From Phycicoccus sp. Root101 (GTDB taxonomy: Bacteria > Actinomycetota > Actinomycetes > Actinomycetales > Dermatophilaceae), in assembly GCF_001426245.1 (NCBI RefSeq), contig NZ_LMCM01000010.1, positions 1 through 64,000 of the forward strand: 64,000 nt of DNA. Reading direction: 5' to 3'. The notes below the pieces were generated by a model that saw only the letters and a list, made by a program, of their open reading frames with translations, did no database searches and was not told the origin of the DNA. Below are positions 50,001 through 58,600 of the stretch, piece by piece. Every line of letters begins with the position of its first letter. Position 1 is the stretch's first letter. The translations under genes were made by a program, and so were the position numbers.

Positions 50001-50522
50001 TCAGTTGCGGCGGGAGGTGAGCTCTCGCCGGACGTGCTCCACGACGCCGTCCGCCGCGGCCGTGACCTCGGCGTAGGTCTGGTCGAAGGCGCTGTCGTCG
50101 CCGTACCAGGGGTCGTCCATGTCGAGGTCGTCGGTCTCGGCGGAGACGGGGTCGAAGGACCGGAACATCCGCACCTTGGCCCGCTGCTCGTCGGTGCGGG
50201 CGAGCTTGGTCAGCTCGCGGTGGTGGCCGGCATCGGCGGCCAGGACCAGGTCGACCTCGTCGAACCACGACCGCTCGAACCTGCGGGCCACGTGGTCGCT
50301 GCCGCCGAGGTCGTCGTGGCCGTTGCGGGCGAGGACCGCCAGCGTGCGTGGGTCGGCCGGGTTGCCGACCTCCCACGAGTGCGTCCCGGCGGAGTCGACG
50401 ACCACCTCGTCCTCGAGCCCGGCGTCGGCGAACCGCTCGCGCAGCAGGAACTCGCCCATGGGGGACCGGCAGATGTTGCCGGTGCAGACGACGGTGACGC
50501 GGTAGGGCCGGTTGGTGCTCAT
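50001..50522 (-). CDS. low-molecular-weight protein-tyrosine phosphatase
   Basis: Phosphatase of 173 residues. The P-loop C13-TGNIC-R19-S (CX5R) is at the N-terminus, as the class requires, and the general-acid aspartate is in MDDPWYGDDSAF near the end. These enzymes reverse tyrosine phosphorylation, often of polysaccharide export kinases, or act on arginine phosphate. ATG 50522 is backed by TTGAAT 6 nt upstream. Not linked to a kinase here. Confidence 0.92.
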   Translation of the reverse strand: MSTNRPYRVTVVCTGNICRSPMGEFLLRERFADAGLEDEVVVDSAGTHSWEVGNPADPRTLAVLARNGHDDLGGSDHVARRFERSWFDEVDLVLAADAGHHRELTKLARTDEQRAKVRMFRSFDPVSAETDDLDMDDPWYGDDSAFDQTYAEVTAAADGVVEHVRRELTSRRN

Positions 50523-50546
50523 GCGGCCATTCAACCCTGCCGCGGT

Positions 50547-51467
50547 TCAGCCCAGTGCGACGGCCAGCAGCGCCACGGGCGTGGTGAGCACCAGCGCTGC
50601 GAACGCGAGCATCGCCATTCGAAGGGCGGGGCTGGCGTCGGGTTCGGTGAGCAGCAGCATGCGGTCGCGGGTGGCCGACGACGCCCCGGCAGACCTGTCG
50701 GCGGCGCCCCCGTCGCCGGCGCTCCCGCCCACGGCACCGCCGTCGGCAGCGTCTCCGTCGGTCGTGCCGTCGGTGGCTCCCAGGGCCGTGTCCGGGTGCG
50801 CGCCCCTGGCCAGCGACACGAGGGCGCGGGCGAGCGGAACCGGTCCGGCGACCTTGCGGGCGGCCCGGTCGGCCAGCACCTCGACGAGCAACCGGACCTC
50901 GCGCAGCGCCTCGACCGCCCGCAGCCGCGACGGCACCGCCTCGTGCAGCACCGCGAAGAACTCCAGCACCAGGTCGTGCCTCGCCCGCAGGTGCGCCCGT
51001 TCGTGCGCGAGGACCGCGGCGAGCTCGTCGGCGGGCAGGGCCAGCAGGGTGCCCTCGGTGAGGACCACCCGTCGTCGCCGCCCGGGCAGGCAGTATGCCG
51101 TCGGCGTGGGGTGCGCGAGGACGCGCACCTCGCCCCCGGCCAGGCCCGCGGTGCGGCTGTCATGGGTCCCGAGCGCGTCGACCAGCTCGCCGTGGCGACG
51201 GCGCTCGCTGCGCAGCCGGGTGCCGACCCGGTGACCGGACCACAGCACGCGGGCGAGCATGCCGCCGCTGAACAGGAGGGCGACGACCGTGGCCCACCCC
51301 GGCAGCGTGGTGCTCGCGACAGCCGCCGGCGCCACGGCGAGGGCGGCCACGACCCCGGCCAGCGACACGCACTGCCACACGACCAGCGCCTCGAACGGTG
51401 CCCGCCTGAACCGCGTCAGCCCGGCCATGACCCGCGGACCCGGCCCGGCCAACGACCCGGCGGCCAC
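50547..51467 (-). CDS. M56-family (BlaR1/MecR1-like) membrane peptidase
   Basis: Membrane zinc peptidase of at least 306 residues. The zinc site is H155-E-R-A-H159 with upstream helices at about 25-50 and 58-75, and a final C-terminal helix. A 40-residue Gly/Ala/Asp linker separates the protease core from that helix. It lacks the penicillin-sensor domain of BlaR1, so the inducer is not necessarily a beta-lactam. The annotated GTG 51467 is the only standard start, but hydrophobic residues continue in frame upstream to about 51518, where a CTG overlaps the blaI stop, so the start is uncertain. By family analogy it inactivates the BlaI repressor encoded just upstream. Confidence 0.85.
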   Translation of the reverse strand: MAAGSLAGPGPRVMAGLTRFRRAPFEALVVWQCVSLAGVVAALAVAPAAVASTTLPGWATVVALLFSGGMLARVLWSGHRVGTRLRSERRRHGELVDALGTHDSRTAGLAGGEVRVLAHPTPTAYCLPGRRRRVVLTEGTLLALPADELAAVLAHERAHLRARHDLVLEFFAVLHEAVPSRLRAVEALREVRLLVEVLADRAARKVAGPVPLARALVSLARGAHPDTALGATDGTTDGDAADGGAVGGSAGDGGAADRSAGASSATRDRMLLLTEPDASPALRMAMLAFAALVLTTPVALLAVALG

Positions 51468-51514
51468 GGCCAGCGCGACGGTGGCGGCCGGAGCAGCGGA
51501 GGCGAGCTCCCCGG

Positions 51515-51934
51515 TCAGGGTCGCGGGCCCTCGGAGTGCCGCTGCTCCACCTCGGCGAGGGCCGCCTTGAGGTCGGCGATCTCCTCTGCCGTGGCATCCC
51601 CGAGGAAGTGCAGCATCGCGGTCCGTCGGTCGGGGGCCGCCATGCCGCTCAGCTGGGCCCGCATCGAGGTGGCGGTGAGCTCCTCGCGGGAGTCGGCCGC
51701 GGCATACAGGTAGGCCCGTCCGCTGCGCTCCTGCGTGAGGAGCCCGCTCTCGGCAAGGCGCCCCATGACGGTCATGACCGTCGTGTAGGCGAGGTCGCGG
51801 CTGCGGCTCAGCTCGTCGTGCACCTCGCGGACCGAGAGGGGGGCGCGACCGTCGGCCCCGGCCGCCCAGACGGCGTCCATCACCGCACGCTCGAGCTCGC
51901 CGAGCTTGTTGATCGCCTTGTGCGGCATCGTCAT
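51515..51934 (-). CDS. blaI: BlaI/MecI/CopY family transcriptional repressor
   Basis: Repressor of 139 residues. The winged helix covers residues 8-80 (LGELERAVMDAVWAA, LSVREVHDEL, LAYTTVMTVMGRLAESGLL) and the C-terminal part is the dimerisation and cleavage region. Such proteins bind dyads with TAC..GTA cores and are removed by proteolysis through an M56 partner. Here it is the fifth gene of the cytochrome bd operon, overlapping cydC by ATGA, with the M56 gene following. The tandem TACTACG dyads upstream of cydA are its likely sites. Confidence 0.92.
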   Translation of the reverse strand: MTMPHKAINKLGELERAVMDAVWAAGADGRAPLSVREVHDELSRSRDLAYTTVMTVMGRLAESGLLTQERSGRAYLYAAADSREELTATSMRAQLSGMAAPDRRTAMLHFLGDATAEEIADLKAALAEVEQRHSEGPRP

Positions 51935-53592
51935 CCCACCTGTCCCACGAGCCCGACCTCCGGGCTCGTCAGGTCCATGATGCCGTCCGCGTCCGTGAGC
52001 CCCTCGGGCCGGTGGCTGACGACGACCACGGTGCGCCCGCCGCGGGACCGGACGAGGTCCCGCAGGACCGCGACGGCGGTGGGGTGGTCGAGGTGGGCGA
52101 CGGGCTCGTCGAGCAGCACCACGGGTCGGCCGGACAGCAGCGCGCGGGCGATGGACAGCCGGGCACGTTCGCCGCCGCTGACGCCCTGTCCGCCGCTGCC
52201 CAGGACCGTGTCGAGACCGTTCGGGAGCGACGCGAACCACTCGCCCAGCCCGGCGTCGTCGAGCGCCTGCCCGACGGCCCGGTCGTCGGCACCCGGTCTG
52301 GCGAGTCGCAGGTTCTCGCGCAGGGTCGTCGCGAACACGTGCGGCTCGTCGTCGACCACGGCGACGAGGTCGCGGACCGTGGCGGCAGGCAGGTCACGGA
52401 CGTCGACCCCGTCCACGAGGAACCGCCCGTCCGACGGGTCGAGCTGTCGCGCGAGGACGGCGAGGAGGGTCGACTTGCCGCAACCGCTCGGCCCGACGAC
52501 GGCCTGCACGGTCCCGGCCGGCAGGTCGAGGTCGGTCGTGGGCAGGTGGGTGCGGGTGCCGTCCCAGGTCGCGCTGACCCCGCGCAGCTCGAGGTGGGGC
52601 GTGCCGCCCGGCCGGCGCGGGCGCAGCCGACCGGACAGGGGCTGCGGGTGGTCGACGACGGCGGGTTCCGCGTCGAGCAGGAAGTCCAGACGCGTCGCGC
52701 TCGCCTGCGCGCGGGCCCATGAGCGGGCGACGTCCGGCAGGGAGCCGAACACCTCGGCCAGGGCGAACGGCGCCAGCACCAGGAGGGCCGTCACGGGGTC
52801 GGAGTGCCCACCGCGACGGGCGACGACGGCGCACGCGACCGTGGCCAGCGCGGTCGCGAGCGGGAGGGCGGCCGCGGCGAGGGCGCGGCCGACGGCCTGG
52901 CGTCGCGTGCTCGCCGCGACGGCTGCGTGGGCCTCGTCGACCCGGGCCAGCGCAGCGGCCGTGGCCCCGATGGCCTGCAGCTCGTCGACCTGCGAGGCCA
53001 CCAGCTCGGTCACCCGGGTCAGCTCCTCCCGGGCCGTGCCGAGCTCGACCTGGCTTCGTGCCTCCACCCGCCAGGCGACCATGGTGACCGCCGCGACGGT
53101 GGCGAGGAGGCCAGCGACGACGATGCCGGCCGCGGGTTCGACGAGGGTGCACAGCACCAGGGCACCGGCGCCGGTCAGGGTCACCGCGAGCACGGGCACC
53201 GTCACCCGGACCTGCGCCTCGACCCGGTCGGTGACGTCGTCGACGACGCCGCGCAGCGACGCTGCCCGACCCCGGCGGGGCAGGCGGGCGGGAGTCAGCG
53301 GCACCAGCGCGGCATACACGTCGGTGCGCGCCCGGGCCAGGTCGTCGAGGGCGGCGTCGTGCGAACGCAGCCGCTCGCGGTACCGCAGCACCGGCCTCGC
53401 CATCCCGAACGTCCGGACGGCCACGATCGCGGTGAGCAGGGTGAGGATGACGGGGCGCTCGCTGGCGCGGACGATGAGCCAGCCGGAGGTCGCGGTGAGC
53501 GCCACCCCCGACCCGAGTGCGCCGGCGCCGATGACCCCGGCGAGGACGACGCGGGGCGAGGCCACGCGCCGGCCGACCCGGGGGCTGCTCAT
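51931..53592 (-). CDS. cydC: thiol reductant ABC exporter subunit CydC
   Basis: Half-transporter ABC protein of 553 residues, one half of the CydDC heterodimer that exports cysteine or glutathione-type thiols needed for assembly of cytochrome bd. Six helices cover residues 15-300. The nucleotide domain has VVGPSGCGKST, signature GVSGGERARLSIARA and Walker B VVLLDEPVAHLD. ATG 53592 overlaps the cydD stop (ATGA). Confidence 0.93.
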   Translation of the reverse strand: MSSPRVGRRVASPRVVLAGVIGAGALGSGVALTATSGWLIVRASERPVILTLLTAIVAVRTFGMARPVLRYRERLRSHDAALDDLARARTDVYAALVPLTPARLPRRGRAASLRGVVDDVTDRVEAQVRVTVPVLAVTLTGAGALVLCTLVEPAAGIVVAGLLATVAAVTMVAWRVEARSQVELGTAREELTRVTELVASQVDELQAIGATAAALARVDEAHAAVAASTRRQAVGRALAAAALPLATALATVACAVVARRGGHSDPVTALLVLAPFALAEVFGSLPDVARSWARAQASATRLDFLLDAEPAVVDHPQPLSGRLRPRRPGGTPHLELRGVSATWDGTRTHLPTTDLDLPAGTVQAVVGPSGCGKSTLLAVLARQLDPSDGRFLVDGVDVRDLPAATVRDLVAVVDDEPHVFATTLRENLRLARPGADDRAVGQALDDAGLGEWFASLPNGLDTVLGSGGQGVSGGERARLSIARALLSGRPVVLLDEPVAHLDHPTAVAVLRDLVRSRGGRTVVVVSHRPEGLTDADGIMDLTSPEVGLVGQVG

Positions 53593-55190
53593 GCGGTCAC
53601 CCCGACCGGCTGCAGGTGCACGTGCTGGTCGGCGAGGGCGACGAGCTCGGGGCGGTGGGTGACGACGATGACGCAGCGGCGTTCGGCGAGGGTGGCGATG
53701 ACCTCGTGGGTCAGGGCGGCGGTGGCCTCGTCGAGGTGGGCGGTGGGTTCGTCGAGGAGCACGACGGTGGCCCGGCTGAGGGTGGCCCGCGCGAGGACGA
53801 GGCGGGCCCGCTGCCCGGCCGACAGCCCGCGGCCGTCGTCGCCGAGCGGGGTGTCGAGACCTGCGGGCAGGGCGGCGACGGGGCCCTCGAGGCCCACCTC
53901 CCGCAGCGCCGCCCACAACGACTCGCCCGGTGTGCTGGAGTCGCCTCCGAGGGTGAGGTTGCTGCGGATGCTCTCGGTCGTGAGGAACGGGCGTTGCGTC
54001 ACGAGGTGCGTCGCCGGCGCCGTGACCGTCCCCCGGGAGGGTGTCCGCAGGCCGGCCACCAGCGCGAGCAGGGTCGACTTGCCGACGCCCGACGGACCCG
54101 TGACGACGGTGAGGCCGACGCCGGCGGCGAGGTCGAGGTCGTCCAGGACCGGGTGCGTGGCTCCGGGGTGGGTGTACCCGAGCCCGTGCACCTCGACCCG
54201 GGCGGCCTTGGGCACCGTGTGGACGAGGACGCCGTGGTCCTGTCGTTCCTGCGCCCCGTCGCCGAGCCGGGCGGTGACCTCGGCCAGGGCGGCGGCACCG
54301 TCGGCGGCGCTGTGGAACTCCGCGCCCACCCGTCGCACCGGCCAGTAGGCCTCGGGCGCCAGCAGGATCGCGACCAGGGCCGTCCCGAGCTCCAGGCCGC
54401 CGTGCGACAGCCGCAGCCCCACGATGACGGCGACGATCGCGACACAGATCGTCGCGAGCAGCTCGAGCGCTGCCGAGCTCAGGAAGGCCAGCCGCAGGGT
54501 GGCCATGGTGGTCCGGCGGTGCCGCTGGCTGACCTCGCCGATGACGGCGGTCTGTCGCTCGGCCCGACCGTAGGCCGCCAGCGTCGGCAGCCCGCGCACC
54601 ACGTCGAGGAAGTGCCCGGACAAGGAGGCCAGTGCCTTCCAGCGCTGCTGGGTCGCGTCGCGGGTCGTGGCCCCGATCAGGGCGGCGAACACCGGGAGCA
54701 GCGGCAGGGTGAGCACGACCACGAGGGCGCTGCGCCAGTCGACGACCGCGAGGACCACGACGGCCAGCGGCGGGACGACGCAGGCGGTGACGAGGGCGGG
54801 CAGGAACCGTGCGACGTACGGCTCGATGCTCGTCGCTCCCTGGTCGGCGAGGACCAGGGCGGTCGCCGGGTCGGGGCGCCGCTCGGCCGGGGCGGCGGCC
54901 CAGTGGCGCAGGAGGCGGCTGCGGGCCCCGGCGCTGACCGCGGCACCCGCCGACGCCGCCACGCGTTCGCCGGTCAGGGCGAGCAGCCCGCGGACCACGA
55001 ACAGTCCGAGCAGGTATGCCGCGGGGGCGCCGAGCGGCACACCCCTCACCGCCGCGACCACCACGGCGGACAGGGCGAACGCCGTGGCGACGGTCGCGAT
55101 GCCCTGGGCCACGCCCACGGCGCCGAGGGTGGCGAGCGGGCGTCGGGCCTCGGGCAGCGTGCGCAGGACCTGCGGGTCGAACGGACGCAT
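53589..55190 (-). CDS. cydD: thiol reductant ABC exporter subunit CydD
   Basis: Half-transporter ABC protein of 533 residues, partner of CydC. Membrane region to about residue 310, then VVTGPSGVGKST, signature GLSAGQRARLVLARA and Walker B VVLLDEPTAHLDEATAAL. Divided cydD and cydC genes directly after cydB are typical of gram-positive bacteria. ATG 55190 shares a base with the cydB stop. Confidence 0.93.
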   Translation of the reverse strand: MRPFDPQVLRTLPEARRPLATLGAVGVAQGIATVATAFALSAVVVAAVRGVPLGAPAAYLLGLFVVRGLLALTGERVAASAGAAVSAGARSRLLRHWAAAPAERRPDPATALVLADQGATSIEPYVARFLPALVTACVVPPLAVVVLAVVDWRSALVVVLTLPLLPVFAALIGATTRDATQQRWKALASLSGHFLDVVRGLPTLAAYGRAERQTAVIGEVSQRHRRTTMATLRLAFLSSAALELLATICVAIVAVIVGLRLSHGGLELGTALVAILLAPEAYWPVRRVGAEFHSAADGAAALAEVTARLGDGAQERQDHGVLVHTVPKAARVEVHGLGYTHPGATHPVLDDLDLAAGVGLTVVTGPSGVGKSTLLALVAGLRTPSRGTVTAPATHLVTQRPFLTTESIRSNLTLGGDSSTPGESLWAALREVGLEGPVAALPAGLDTPLGDDGRGLSAGQRARLVLARATLSRATVVLLDEPTAHLDEATAALTHEVIATLAERRCVIVVTHRPELVALADQHVHLQPVGVTA

Positions 55191-56245
55191 CAGCGGGTGG
55201 CCGGGCTGGGCTCGGCGTGGTCGTGCCTGGTGGCGCCCGGGATGTGCTGCGTGCCGATGCGCTTGCGGAAGATCCAGTACGTCCACGACTGGTAGAGCAG
55301 CACGATCGGCGTGAACACCACCGCCACCCACGTCATGATCTTGAGCGTGTAGGGCGTGCTCGAGGCGTTGGCGGTCGTCAGCGACCACGCGGCGTCGAGG
55401 GTGCTGGGCATGACGTTCGGGAAGAGCAGGAGGAAGTACGTCGTCACGGCCATCGCGATGGTCACGAAGGTGCCGACGAAGGCCCAGCCCTCGCGGCCCC
55501 GCAGGTTGGCCGCCAGGGAGGCGACGAGGGCGCCGGCGGCGACCACGGTCGACACCCACGAACCGATGTTGCCGTCAGCGGCGCCGAGGATGGCGAGGAG
55601 GGCGACGGCGAGGACGGCGGTGACGACGCCGGTGCGGGTGGCGACGCCCCGGGCGTCCTCACGGATCGGGCCGGTGGTCTTCAGGGCCACGAACAACGCG
55701 CCGTGGGTGAGGAAGAGGCCGACGGTGACGAGGCCACCGAGCAGCGAGACCGGGTTGAGCAGGGTGAACAGGTTGCCGGTGAACTCCTTGCTCGCGTCGA
55801 TCGGCAGGCCCCGCACGACGTTGGTCAGGGCGACGCCCCAGAGCAGGGCCGGCACCGCCGAGCCGACGATGATCGCGGCGTCCCAGCGGGCCCGCCACGT
55901 GGCGTCATCGCGCTTGCCGCGGTAGTCGAACCCGAGGTTGCGCACGATGAGGGCGACGAGGATGAGCAGCAGGGGGAGGTAGAACGCGCTGAACATGGTG
56001 GCGTACCAGTGCGGGAAGGCGGCGAAGGTGGCCCCACCCGCCGTCAGCACCCAGACCTCGTTGCCGTCCCACACCGGGCCGATCGTGTTGATCATGACCC
56101 GGCGGCGCTTCTCCGTGGTCTCGTCGTCCTCGCCCCGTCCGAGGACGGGGAGCAGCATGCCCACCCCGAAGTCGAAGCCCTCGAGGACGAAGTAGCCGGT
56201 CCACAGGACGGCGATGATGATGAACCACACGGTGCTGAGTTCCAT
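55190..56245 (-). CDS. cydB: cytochrome bd ubiquinol/menaquinol oxidase subunit II
   Basis: Membrane subunit of 351 residues with eight to nine helices. It starts MELSTVWFIIIAVLWTGYFVLEGFDFGVGMLLP, the family's opening, and holds IGPVWDGNEVW, the conserved loop. An AAGGA ribosome site is 10 nt before ATG 56245, immediately after a tetranucleotide microsatellite in the 61-bp gap from cydA. It joins CydA in oxygen reduction with high affinity. Confidence 0.95.
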   Translation of the reverse strand: MELSTVWFIIIAVLWTGYFVLEGFDFGVGMLLPVLGRGEDDETTEKRRRVMINTIGPVWDGNEVWVLTAGGATFAAFPHWYATMFSAFYLPLLLILVALIVRNLGFDYRGKRDDATWRARWDAAIIVGSAVPALLWGVALTNVVRGLPIDASKEFTGNLFTLLNPVSLLGGLVTVGLFLTHGALFVALKTTGPIREDARGVATRTGVVTAVLAVALLAILGAADGNIGSWVSTVVAAGALVASLAANLRGREGWAFVGTFVTIAMAVTTYFLLLFPNVMPSTLDAAWSLTTANASSTPYTLKIMTWVAVVFTPIVLLYQSWTYWIFRKRIGTQHIPGATRHDHAEPSPATR

Positions 56246-56262
56246 TGCGGTGCAATCCTTTT

Positions 56263-56297
56263 CAGTCAGTCAGTCAGTCAGTCAGTCAGTCAGTCAG
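56263..56297. repeat. tetranucleotide microsatellite, nearly 9 copies of CAGT
   Basis: An uninterrupted run of CAGT (CTGA-type on the coding strand) of 35 bases, 8.75 copies, in the gap between the cydA stop and the cydB ribosome site. It is the only such tract in the window, and it is striking in so GC-rich a sequence. Confidence 0.97.
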
Positions 56298-56306
56298 CGA
56301 CGGCGG

Positions 56307-57740
56307 TCAGTAGGCGAAGGCGAGGGGGGCGTCCTCGTCCTGGTCGGCGGCGACCACGGGGTCCTCGAACGGCGGCGCCCCGGCGCGCAGGTAGGTGAGG
56401 AAGAGCTTCACCTCGATGACCGCGAGCACGCCGTAGAGCAGCGTGTAGACGACCATCGACGTGACCACCTCGCCGGCCGAGACCGACGGTGAGACCCCGG
56501 TGCTGGTCGACATCACGCCGAACACCAGCCACGGCTGGCGACCGGCCTCGGTGAAGATCCAGCCGAAGCTGTTGCCGAAGATGGGCAGCAGCGGTGTCGC
56601 GATGACGACCCAGTGCCACCAGCGCGCGCGGGGAACGCGACCGCCGCGAGTCGTCCAGAGGACCGCGAGGGCGATGAGGCAGGCGGCCATGCCGACGCCG
56701 ATCATCAGCCGGAAGCTCCAGTAGGACAGCGGGATGTTGGGCGTGTAGGTCGCGTCCGCGGTGAGCGGGTTGCCGGTGCCGTACTTCTGCGCGTACTCCG
56801 CCTTGAGCTCGTTGATGCCCTGGACGCTGCCGTCGAAGTGCCCGGTCGCCAGGAAGCTCAGCAGCCCGGGGACGGTGACCGCGAACTTCTCCTCGCTGCC
56901 GTCGAGCGAGCCGATCGTCAGCAGCGAGAAGGGGGCGTTGCCGTCGGAGCTGTCGTACAGCGCCTCTGCCGCAGCCATCTTCATCGGCTGGACGTCGGTC
57001 ATGATCTTGCCCTGGATGTCGCCGGTCACGGCGAGGGCGAGACCCGCGACGAGGGTGACGACGGCTCCCAGGCGGGTCGCGCGCCGGTACATCCCCTCGT
57101 CCGTGCCCACGTCGACCCGGCGCAGGTGCCACAGCGCGACGGCCATGACGACCGCGCCCCCGACGAGGTAGGCCGCCGCGACGACGTGGGGGAACGTCAC
57201 GAGCTGCACCTTGTTGGTGAGGACCGCGCCGAAGTCGGTCAGCTCGGCCCGCTTGGTCACCGGGTTGAGGCGGTAGCCGACGGGGTTCTGCATGAACGAG
57301 TTGGCGCTGAGGATGAAGTACGCCGACAGCAGCGTGCCCACGTGCACGATCCACATGCAGGCTGCGTGCAGCTTCTCGGGGATGCGGCCCCAGCCGAAGA
57401 TCCACAGCCCGAGGAAGGTCGACTCGAGGAAGAACGCGAGGAGCGCCTCGATCGCCAGCGGTGCGCCGAAGATGTCTCCGACGAACCGGCTGTAGTCCGA
57501 CCAGTTCATGCCGAACTGGAACTCCTGCACGATGCCCGTGACGAGCCCGAGCGCGAAGTTGATCGTGAAGAGCTTGCCGAAGAACTTGGCGAGCCGCAGG
57601 TCGTCCGGCCGGCGGCGCCGCACCCACGAGGAGTGGTACCAGGCCACGAGGGCGGACAGGCCGATTGTCACCGGCACGAACAGGAAGTGGTAGACGGTGG
57701 TGATGGCGAACTGCCACCTGGCCAGGTCGAGGTTGTCCAT
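56307..57740 (-). CDS. cydA: cytochrome bd ubiquinol/menaquinol oxidase subunit I
   Basis: Heme-bearing subunit of 477 residues. The family motif GRQPW (EAGRQPWLVFG) is present, as are the N-terminal histidine ligand segment TVYHFLFVPVTIGLSALVAW and the FFLESTFLGLWIFGW helix. The Q loop appears to be the short form. It starts at ATG 57740 in a region with two tandem dyads 37-72 bp upstream. It begins the operon cydA-cydB-cydD-cydC-blaI-M56. Confidence 0.96.
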   Translation of the reverse strand: MDNLDLARWQFAITTVYHFLFVPVTIGLSALVAWYHSSWVRRRRPDDLRLAKFFGKLFTINFALGLVTGIVQEFQFGMNWSDYSRFVGDIFGAPLAIEALLAFFLESTFLGLWIFGWGRIPEKLHAACMWIVHVGTLLSAYFILSANSFMQNPVGYRLNPVTKRAELTDFGAVLTNKVQLVTFPHVVAAAYLVGGAVVMAVALWHLRRVDVGTDEGMYRRATRLGAVVTLVAGLALAVTGDIQGKIMTDVQPMKMAAAEALYDSSDGNAPFSLLTIGSLDGSEEKFAVTVPGLLSFLATGHFDGSVQGINELKAEYAQKYGTGNPLTADATYTPNIPLSYWSFRLMIGVGMAACLIALAVLWTTRGGRVPRARWWHWVVIATPLLPIFGNSFGWIFTEAGRQPWLVFGVMSTSTGVSPSVSAGEVVTSMVVYTLLYGVLAVIEVKLFLTYLRAGAPPFEDPVVAADQDEDAPLAFAY

Positions 57741-57776
57741 CGTTGCTCCGGGGTTCTCTGCACGACTGCGGGGCAC

Positions 57777-57812
57777 TACTACGGTTCGTAGTACATACTA
57801 CGCCGCGTCGTA
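57777..57812. promoter_or_regulatory. two tandem 17-bp dyads (BlaI-like operator) upstream of cydA
   Basis: The first dyad is TACTACG-gtt-CGTAGTA (57777-57793, perfect). The second, 2 bp on, is TACTACG-ccg-CGTCGTA (57796-57812, one mismatch). Their centres are 19 bp apart, about two helical turns, as for cooperative dimers. TAC..GTA cores suit BlaI/CopY-type repressors, and a blaI gene ends the operon that starts here. Confidence 0.8.
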
Positions 57813-57879
57813 GACCTGGTGACAGGGGCGAAGGTCCCGACCACCCGTGACTCGCGTCTCACCGCCCGCTCCGGCTGGT

Positions 57880-57892: not shown

Positions 57893-58600
57893 ATGCCGCG
57901 TCCGCTCGTCCTCGTGCCCGCTCGCTGGGCGGGGCAGATCGAGGGACGCCCGCGCCCGGGCGTCTTCGCCCCGCGGTCCCTGGTGGACGCCATCGTCCGC
58001 GCCGGCGGGGAGCCGGTGCTCGCCTGGCCCGAGTCCGTCGAGCGGGCGAGGGACCTCGTGGCCCACGCCGGCGCCGTGGTGCTCCAGGGAGGCGAGGACC
58101 TCGACCTCCGACCGTTCGGTGTCCCGGACGTGCACCCGCGCGAGACGCACCCACCGGCCGAGCAGGACGCCGCGGACGTGGCCGTGACGCGTGCCGCGGT
58201 CGAGGCAGGGCTGCCCGTGCTGGCCATCTGCCGCGGGATGCAGGTGCTCAACATCGTCCTCGGCGGGACGATCCACCAGCACCTCGAGGAGACTTCGGTC
58301 GCCCACGCCGACAACTCCCACGCCGTGGACGTCGTTCCGGGGACCCTGCTCGAACGCGTCCTGGTCCGCGACGGTGGTGGGCTCCGGCGTGACGGCTGGT
58401 CCAACCACCACCAGGCCTGCGACCGGCTGGCCGACGGCTACCTGCTGTCAGCCACCACCCCCGACGGCTGCGTCGAGGCGATGGAGTCGTCCGACGGTCG
58501 CGTCATCGCCGTGCAGTGGCACCCCGAGGTGGACGCTGCCACCGTGCCGCACCAGCAGGCGCTGTTCGACTGGGTCGTCGAGGCCGCTCAGTCCGGGTAG
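57893..58600 (+). CDS. gamma-glutamyl-gamma-aminobutyrate hydrolase-like (peptidase C26)
   Basis: Class I glutamine-amidotransferase-like hydrolase of 235 residues. The nucleophile elbow is VLAICRGMQVLNI, and the His-Glu pair is in VIAVQWHPEVD; LQGGEDLDLRPFG is the substrate loop. PuuD-type enzymes split gamma-glutamyl-GABA in putrescine breakdown, and others act on gamma-glutamyl peptides. No puu genes are beside it. Its last 13 bp overlap the convergent galE. Confidence 0.88.
   Translation: MPRPLVLVPARWAGQIEGRPRPGVFAPRSLVDAIVRAGGEPVLAWPESVERARDLVAHAGAVVLQGGEDLDLRPFGVPDVHPRETHPPAEQDAADVAVTRAAVEAGLPVLAICRGMQVLNIVLGGTIHQHLEETSVAHADNSHAVDVVPGTLLERVLVRDGGGLRRDGWSNHHQACDRLADGYLLSATTPDGCVEAMESSDGRVIAVQWHPEVDAATVPHQQALFDWVVEAAQSG

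What the first reader, a model, noticed from the sequence alone, without database searches (positions are those of the whole stretch)
50547..57812. Cytochrome bd operon ending in a BlaI repressor and M56 peptidase, with tandem BlaI-like operators upstream of cydA
Seen: cydA, cydB, cydD, cydC, blaI and an M56 peptidase run on one strand with 1-4-bp overlaps from cydB to blaI, and two 17-bp TACTACGnnnCGTAGTA dyads lie 37-72 bp upstream of cydA. Known: BlaI/MecI/CopY repressors bind TAC..GTA dyads and are destroyed through an M56 partner (BlaR1/MecR1). Inference: the pair autoregulates the respiratory oxidase and responds to a membrane or redox cue, as the peptidase lacks the penicillin-sensor domain. 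This would link beta-lactam-type sensing machinery to respiration.
Basis: partly seen in the sequence, partly recalled or inferred. Interest (0 to 1): 0.78.

Follow-up and report, generated by a model that had tools for sequence, protein, structure and literature searches.

The report
BlaI-type repressor controlling cytochrome bd oxidase
A repressor and a membrane protease of the kind best known from penicillin resistance sit in the operon of a bacterial respiratory oxidase and almost certainly control it; gene order and DNA sites across actinobacteria suggest that guarding this oxidase, not antibiotic defence, may be the old job of this pair.

Summary
In detail: cydA-cydB-cydD-cydC-blaI-peptidase form one operon, with tandem dyads TACTAC-N5-GTAGTA 37-72 bp before cydA. 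"BlaI represses this oxidase operon" is strongly supported. In the family sample (149 genomes) 95 of 95 readable BlaI-linked cydA genes carry a dyad of at least 10/12; 1 of 27 in genomes without a BlaI hit does, on a contig that ends before blaI would lie. In other families blaI is divergent from cydA with dyads between. In 12 genomes of mycobacteria and kin with blaI elsewhere, 10 keep a site at cydA and five show one before ATP-synthase genes.

The link is not new in kind: a 2017 paper, citing 2009 work, says M. tuberculosis BlaI binds the cytochrome bd and ATP synthase promoters and that mycobacterial BlaR lacks the beta-lactam sensor. New, as far as I found: the operon-embedded, cyd-only form and its breadth, suggesting that oxidase control is ancestral. 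I found nothing for a beta-lactam role. The label M56 fails in Pfam (M48 instead). What the protease senses is unknown.

The parts
56307..57740 (-). cydA, cytochrome bd oxidase subunit I
   Evidence: Pfam Cyt_bd_oxida_I 532.6 bits
55190..56245 (-). cydB, cytochrome bd oxidase subunit II
   Evidence: Pfam Cyt_bd_oxida_II 359.6 bits; TIGR00203 334.2 bits
53589..55190 (-). cydD, half of an ABC exporter (role in oxidase assembly recalled)
   Evidence: TIGR02857 CydD 462.9 bits over cut-off 435
51931..53592 (-). cydC, other half of the ABC exporter
   Evidence: TIGR02868 CydC 441.8 bits over cut-off 329
51515..51934 (-). blaI-type repressor (139 aa), same orthologue group as M. tuberculosis Rv1846c
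   Evidence: Pfam Penicillinase_R 90.9 bits; profile hit to 2g9w E 7.6e-45; tree
50547..51518 (-). membrane zinc protease (gluzincin, M48/M56-like), BlaR-type without sensor domain; start CTG 51518 inferred (GTG 51467 the next choice)
   Evidence: HExxH and ExxxD invariant in 29 sequences; Pfam M48 41.8 bits; model pLDDT 87
57777..57793 (-). operator 2: TACTACGAACCGTAGTA, perfect dyad
   Evidence: dyads co-occur with BlaI
57796..57812 (-). operator 1: TACGACGCGGCGTAGTA, 11 of 12 dyad positions
57795..57800 (-). possible -10 element TAGTAT, shared with the end of operator 1
   Evidence: read by eye; TAGTAT or TAGCAT seen by eye in many relatives; the strict promoter scan finds no promoter
57825..57838 (-). 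GGGACCTTCGCCCC box, DosR/DevR-like (consensus recalled), just upstream of the operators
   Evidence: exact or one-mismatch boxes also before two universal stress protein genes and a GAF-kinase gene in this genome

Best explanation
A dimeric BlaI-type winged-helix repressor binds two adjacent TACTAC-N5-GTAGTA operators that cover the -10 element and start of the cydA promoter, and so represses the whole operon, its own gene included. The membrane gluzincin encoded next to it is the likely antirepressor: on a signal from the membrane or respiratory chain it cuts BlaI in its dimerisation arm and lets cytochrome bd be made. Shown by sequence: operon, operators, their co-occurrence with BlaI, family of the repressor, catalytic motif of the protease, no sensor domain. 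Inferred: binding, repression, cleavage. Guessed: the signal (respiratory block, low oxygen or NO).
For: Dyads of at least 10/12 within 150 bp of cydA: 95/95 BlaI-linked against 1/27 without BlaI hit, Fisher 1e-25, not corrected for kinship; letter-shuffled upstreams reach 10/12 in 5 of 4900. Linkage: BlaI within 12 kb of cydA and on the same strand in 96 of 149 genomes. Other families: at least 35 genomes with blaI divergent from cydA; dyads in 21 of 21 BlaI-bearing loci read and in 0 of 15 loci with cydA only. Named loci: 41 of 80 hold cydA, all 41 with a dyad of at least 10/12 within 260 bp; 77 of 80 hold a peptidase match. Unlinked genomes: TACKAC-N5-GTAGTA site at cydA in 10 of 12. One orthologue group with the mycobacterial BlaI, for which a paper reports binding to cyd and atp promoters and another EMSA on the Rv1303 promoter. 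Protease: invariant H172-E-x-x-H176, E213-x3-D217 and R286; H-to-E spacing 37, as in BlaR1 H205 to E242. BlaI residues H109-F110, both invariant in 22 sequences, align with Asn101-Phe102, the S. aureus cut site. The peptidase profile finds nothing at E <= 1e-6 in 6 of 6 genomes searched that lack the orthologue.
Against: No binding, expression or cleavage data exist for this organism. P1 is His here, not Asn. Three BlaI-bearing genomes have no peptidase match at E <= 1e-6 anywhere (G025, G043, G049), so it may be dispensable; and one of the six orthologue-less genomes (G131) does show a distant peptidase-like gene beside its BlaI paralogue by tblastn. Foldseek matches to BlaR1, Ste24p and ZMPSTE24 all have E > 0.001. 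Kinship inflates the co-occurrence statistics. No full promoter is found by the consensus scan.
Confidence: 0.78

Rival explanations
1. BlaI represses cyd through the dyads, but derepression does not need the peptidase: BlaI itself or another factor senses the cue, and the peptidase does something else, such as membrane protein quality control like HtpX.
For: Closest Pfam family is M48, closest NCBIfam models are HtpX, under their cut-offs; three BlaI-bearing genomes lack any detectable copy; in some genera the peptidase gene is on the other strand, kilobases away or on another contig.
Against: 77 of 80 named BlaI loci, unlinked mycobacterial ones included, hold a peptidase match, and the profile finds none in six genomes that lack the orthologue; an invariant HF lies at the position of the known cut site.
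Confidence: 0.17
2. The pair is a beta-lactam sensor that happens to control the oxidase, as the family name suggests.
For: Homology to BlaI/MecI; in M. tuberculosis the pair is reported to control blaC as well (passages).
Against: No search for beta-lactamase genes was made.
Confidence: 0.04
3. The dyads belong to another regulator and the BlaI neighbourhood is coincidental.
For: No direct binding data for this protein.
Against: Dyads come and go with BlaI, also where BlaI is divergent or unlinked; 26 of 27 genomes with cydA and no BlaI hit have no exact TACTAC-N5-GTAGTA match anywhere.
Confidence: 0.03

Closest known systems
M. tuberculosis BlaI-BlaR (Rv1846c-Rv1845c) and its respiratory targets
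   Same: Orthologous repressor (2g9w; tree), peptidase without beta-lactam sensor, same kind of operator at blaI, cydA and atp genes in non-tuberculous mycobacteria and kin; binding to cyd and atp promoters stated in PMC5473688 (passages).
   Different: There the pair is reported to control blaC too, and in the mycobacteria read here it lies apart from cyd; in the window it is the tail of the cyd operon and the only close operators in the genome are at cydA.
S. aureus BlaI/MecI with BlaR1/MecR1
   Same: Repressor family, TAC/GTA-type dyads (recalled), gluzincin signature with the same H-to-E spacing, Phe at the P1' cut position.
   Different: No extracellular penicillin-sensor domain, no Pfam M56 match, target is a respiratory oxidase; sequence similarity to BlaI/MecI is weak (E 3e-10 and 2e-9).
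HtpX/Ste24 (M48) membrane proteases
   Same: Best Pfam, NCBIfam and Foldseek neighbours of the peptidase.
   Different: No match over an HtpX equivalog cut-off; Foldseek E above 0.001; genetic coupling to a BlaI repressor.

Membership tests
BlaI/MecI/CopY repressors (Pfam PF03965) | Profile match over the curated cut-off | tested here: met
   90.9 bits against 22.6
BlaI/MecI/CopY repressors (Pfam PF03965) | Dyad operators at the target promoter | tested here: met
   95/95 linked against 1/27 without BlaI hit
BlaI/MecI/CopY repressors (Pfam PF03965) | Binds the operator and represses | not testable with these tools
   needs a binding assay and expression data
BlaR1/MecR1 sensor-proteases (M56) | Pfam Peptidase_M56 match | tested here: not met
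   no genome match at E <= 1e-3; only M48
BlaR1/MecR1 sensor-proteases (M56) | Membrane gluzincin with HExxH and ExxxD | tested here: met
   invariant in 29 sequences, spacing 37 as in BlaR1; membrane insertion inferred from the helices
BlaR1/MecR1 sensor-proteases (M56) | Extracellular penicillin-binding sensor domain | tested here: not met
   323 aa, no such domain in Pfam scan or model
BlaR1/MecR1 sensor-proteases (M56) | Overall BlaR1 fold | tested here: inconclusive
   Foldseek 8exp/8exr prob 0.95/0.84 but E 0.41/0.71; second aligner not available
BlaR1/MecR1 sensor-proteases (M56) | Cleaves the partner repressor | not testable with these tools
   cut-site alignment N101-F102 to H109-F110 only
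Actinobacterial BlaI-BlaR respiratory regulon (Rv1846c type) | Orthologous repressor | tested here: met
   E 7.6e-45 to 2g9w; one group in the midpoint-rooted tree, deep supports low
Actinobacterial BlaI-BlaR respiratory regulon (Rv1846c type) | Operators at cydA | tested here: met
Actinobacterial BlaI-BlaR respiratory regulon (Rv1846c type) | Operators at ATP synthase genes | tested here: not met
   in this genome only the cydA sites have at most one mismatch; looser sites were not read

The most novel reading that the evidence does not exclude
Regulated proteolysis of a BlaI repressor by a sensor-less membrane protease is an old actinobacterial device for sensing the state of the respiratory chain and switching on cytochrome bd. 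The repressor of M. tuberculosis, named after a beta-lactamase, descends from this oxidase regulator, and BlaR1-type antibiotic receptors are a later elaboration of such a protease by fusion to a penicillin-binding domain.
Probability: 0.33. Interest if true: 0.8.

Novelty: new variant of a known kind. Interest (0 to 1): 0.52.

Why it matters
Cytochrome bd is an oxidase that keeps actinobacteria respiring under low oxygen and respiratory inhibitors, and what induces it is incompletely known. This operon offers the simplest form of the circuit: one promoter, two operators, one repressor and one protease, in a family with many environmental genera. It turns the open question of what a BlaR without a sensor domain senses into a tractable experiment. 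It also suggests that 'BlaI' in this phylum is first a respiratory regulator.

Tried and rejected
Beta-lactam sensing as main function: rejected for lack of support (no sensor domain, no other close operator in the genome). M56 label: tested and not met in Pfam; 'M48/M56-like membrane gluzincin' kept. Chance dyads: rejected. A gene-order accident in one species: rejected. Second structural aligner: not available. Literature searches; one search was too loose and gave nothing useful; ('BlaI family' with 'cytochrome bd' and 'regulon') found no paper; the one paper (PMC7771538) was seen in the listing only. The primary paper of 2009 is not held; I saw it only as cited.

Full report
What is there. 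The minus strand of 50547-57812 carries cydA, cydB, cydD, cydC, a BlaI-type repressor and a membrane protease gene. Overlaps of 1 to 4 bp join cydB through blaI; 61 bp separate cydA and cydB. The protease gene has no ATG, GTG or TTG in frame upstream of GTG 51467. A CTG at 51518 overlapping the blaI stop keeps the first predicted helix, so it is my preferred start, by inference. Two 17-bp dyads lie before cydA at 57777-57793 and 57796-57812, 19 bp apart. A TAGTAT that could serve as -10 element overlaps the end of the first dyad, which would put the transcription start inside the second; the strict promoter scan finds no complete promoter.

More than chance. The genome has one protein over the PF03965 cut-off, this BlaI, and one partial match just under it (22.2 against 22.6 bits).

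Family survey. In 149 genomes of the family (an even sample of a larger group, drafts included; 53 genera) 114 genomes, from 41 genera, give a BlaI hit and 138 a CydA hit. In 96 a BlaI lies within 12 kb of cydA, always on the same strand: 89 downstream (88 of them 5.1 to 6.5 kb after the cydA start; G082 has only a cydA fragment 1.2 kb before blaI) and 7, all of one genus, upstream in the order blaI-protease-cydA. I scored the best TACTAC-N5-GTAGTA match (12 fixed positions) in the 150 bp before cydA. Of the 96, 95 were readable (not G082) and all 95 score 10 to 12. Of 27 genomes with cydA and no BlaI hit, 26 score 5 to 8 and one (G046) scores 12. The G046 contig ends before the place where blaI would lie, so this exception is not informative. 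Ten further genomes have a BlaI hit not near cydA: five score 11 (G022, G064, G066, G068, G134), five score 5 to 8 (G002, G055, G084, G107, G108), and the BlaI hits of the latter five are weak, E 2.8e-14 to 7.5e-6. One short upstream (G093) was dropped. Fisher's test gives 1e-25, and letter-shuffled upstreams reach 10 in 5 of 4900. The genomes are related, so the P-value is not to be taken at face value. Exact dyads anywhere in the genome: 68 of 96 linked genomes against 1 of 27 without BlaI hit.

Beyond the family. In 198 genomes of the order, 67 genomes of other families have a BlaI hit at E <= 1e-10; in at least 35 of these, from six families, blaI is divergent from cydA with 101-302 bp between the matches. 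All 21 such loci that I read have dyads of at least 10/12 in the 260 bp before cydA, two of them from one family with the variant TTCTAC-N5-GTAGAA. The 15 loci from other families with cydA but no BlaI, whose genomes are also without a listed BlaI hit, score at most 7. The named loci tie the family to Nostocoides, Phycicoccus, Knoellia, Janibacter, Serinicoccus and Flexivirga (contig lengths agree with G handles, for example G001 with Nostocoides sp. Soil756); NCBI places Phycicoccus in the Intrasporangiaceae. The window's own genus was not named by any search. Of 80 named loci, 41 contain cydA: 30 divergent (Nocardioides, Kribbella, Actinoplanes, Kineosporia, Actinomycetospora and others), 10 operon-type and 1 with blaI upstream; all 41 have a dyad of at least 10/12 within 260 bp. 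The operon-type ones largely repeat genomes of the family survey. I chose 12 genomes from the other 39 loci (five Mycobacterium, two Gordonia, one each of Nocardia, Williamsia, Tomitella, Lolliginicoccus, Aldersonia) and searched them for TACKAC-N5-GTAGTA. All 12 have matches; in 10 of 12 one lies 18 to 78 bp before the cydA reading frame as called. The two without are Tomitella and Aldersonia. Others lie before blaI, 213 to 256 bp before AtpI- or AtpB-type ATP synthase genes in five genomes (G333, G334, G341 and G343 checked with Pfam, G337 by likeness only), and before a flavohaemoglobin gene. Some matches fall inside genes or beside unrelated ones, and the reversed control pattern gives nearly as many rows (47 against 58, both strands summed). 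Single matches there are therefore weak evidence; the recurrence at cydA is what counts.

Repressor. The 22-member alignment matches M. tuberculosis Rv1846c (2g9w) at 7.6e-45 and staphylococcal BlaI and MecI at 3e-10 and 2e-9 (that 2g9w is Rv1846c is recalled, the listing calls it a conserved hypothetical protein). A FastTree of 179 BlaI sequences, midpoint-rooted, puts operon-type, divergent and unlinked (mycobacterial) copies in one group apart from six paralogues (0.97), with 28 unlinked ones together (support 0.999) beside divergent ones (0.886); two family members group with divergent Nocardioides copies, and deeper supports are low. This fits, but does not prove, an origin of the mycobacterial gene from a cyd-linked one.

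Protease. H172-E-x-x-H176, E213-x3-D217 and R286 are invariant in 29 sequences. The published BlaR1 signature is H201EXXH and E242XXXD, with Asp246 paired to Arg294 (PMC9834060, passages); the H-to-E spacing of 37 is identical. The model (pLDDT 87) is mostly helical. Foldseek ranks Ste24p, ZMPSTE24, an M48 peptidase and BlaR1, all above E 0.001. There is no penicillin-binding domain. S. aureus BlaI is cut between Asn101 and Phe102; in the profile alignment that pair faces His109-Phe110 here, both invariant in 22 sequences. Of 80 named loci 77 hold a peptidase match. In the family survey ten BlaI-bearing loci showed none: seven of these genomes have one elsewhere (five about 3 to 12 kb away, two on other contigs), three have none at E <= 1e-6. 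Of six genomes that lack the orthologue (five without any BlaI hit, G131 with a weak paralogue only) none has a match to the peptidase profile at that cut-off; G131 shows a distant peptidase-like neighbour of its paralogue.

Wider targets in some relatives. Forty further exact sites in eleven genomes, chosen from the cut list, were read; by a crude gene caller 32 of 40 are intergenic, many 20-100 bp before a gene. Recurrent neighbours: an HtpX-type M48 protease (6 loci), a 198-aa membrane protein often divergent from it (8 loci), a 195-aa membrane protein without Pfam match (7 loci), NAD synthase with a pyridoxamine-oxidase-like gene, pyruvate phosphate dikinase, universal stress proteins, and a flavoprotein of the Pyr_redox_2 family that I would call sulfide-quinone-reductase-like. 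In the window's genome the close sites are confined to cyd.

A second input. A GGGACCTTCGCCCC box lies at 57825-57838; the name of the box (DosR/DevR) is recalled. Such boxes precede cydA in five genomes of the window's genus, two of another genus and G096, with or without BlaI. In this genome there are five exact places: a pair beside a universal stress protein gene, this one, and two others, one of them inside a gene. One-mismatch forms lie by another universal stress protein gene and by a GAF-domain histidine kinase gene, but most one-mismatch forms are inside genes and the reversed control gives 18 matches against 27. A hypoxia activator plus a BlaI repressor is a plausible promoter logic, untested.

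What is known. A paper of 2017 states, citing Sala et al. 2009, that M. tuberculosis BlaI binds the promoters of cytochrome bd and ATP synthase and that mycobacterial BlaR lacks the sensor domain (PMC5473688, passages). A 2025 paper reports EMSA with the Rv1303 promoter (PMC12565901, passages). A review names BlaI as regulator of the atp operon (PMC5874750, passages). The 2009 paper is not held and was not read. So the regulatory link is published. I found no paper on the operon-embedded form or on its spread through the phylum (searches; open-licence papers only).

Verdict. A dedicated, self-regulated, cyd-only form of the actinobacterial BlaI circuit: a new variant of a known kind. The repressor-operator part is close to certain by comparative evidence, the protease step is likely, the signal is open.

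Noticed in passing
57825-57838: GGGACCTTCGCCCC box resembling DosR/DevR sites (recalled), next to the BlaI operators; same kind of box near two universal stress protein genes and a GAF-domain sensor kinase gene in the genome.
   Followed up: partly
L187-L226: Extra exact operator sites in some relatives before HtpX, a 198-aa membrane protein, a 195-aa membrane protein, NAD synthase, PPDK, USP and a Pyr_redox_2 flavoprotein gene: a possible wider BlaI regulon.
   Followed up: partly
L369, L376, L395: Operator-like sites before a flavohaemoglobin, a DUF4383 and a DUF3817 gene in Tomitella, Mycobacterium and Williamsia.
   Followed up: no
L089, L100, L117, L124, L133, L140, L153: In some genera the protease gene is next to or near blaI but on the opposite strand.
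   Followed up: no
L268, L276: Two loci of one family use the operator variant TTCTAC-N5-GTAGAA between blaI and cydA.
   Followed up: no
L321: A contig labelled Bifidobacterium breve MAG carries a BlaI with peptidase and an operator upstream as in the mycobacterial loci; possibly a mis-binned contig.
   Followed up: no
50001-50534 and 57893-58600: Neighbours, read by eye only: a low-molecular-weight phosphatase-like gene after the protease and a class I amidotransferase-like gene divergent from cydA.
   Followed up: no
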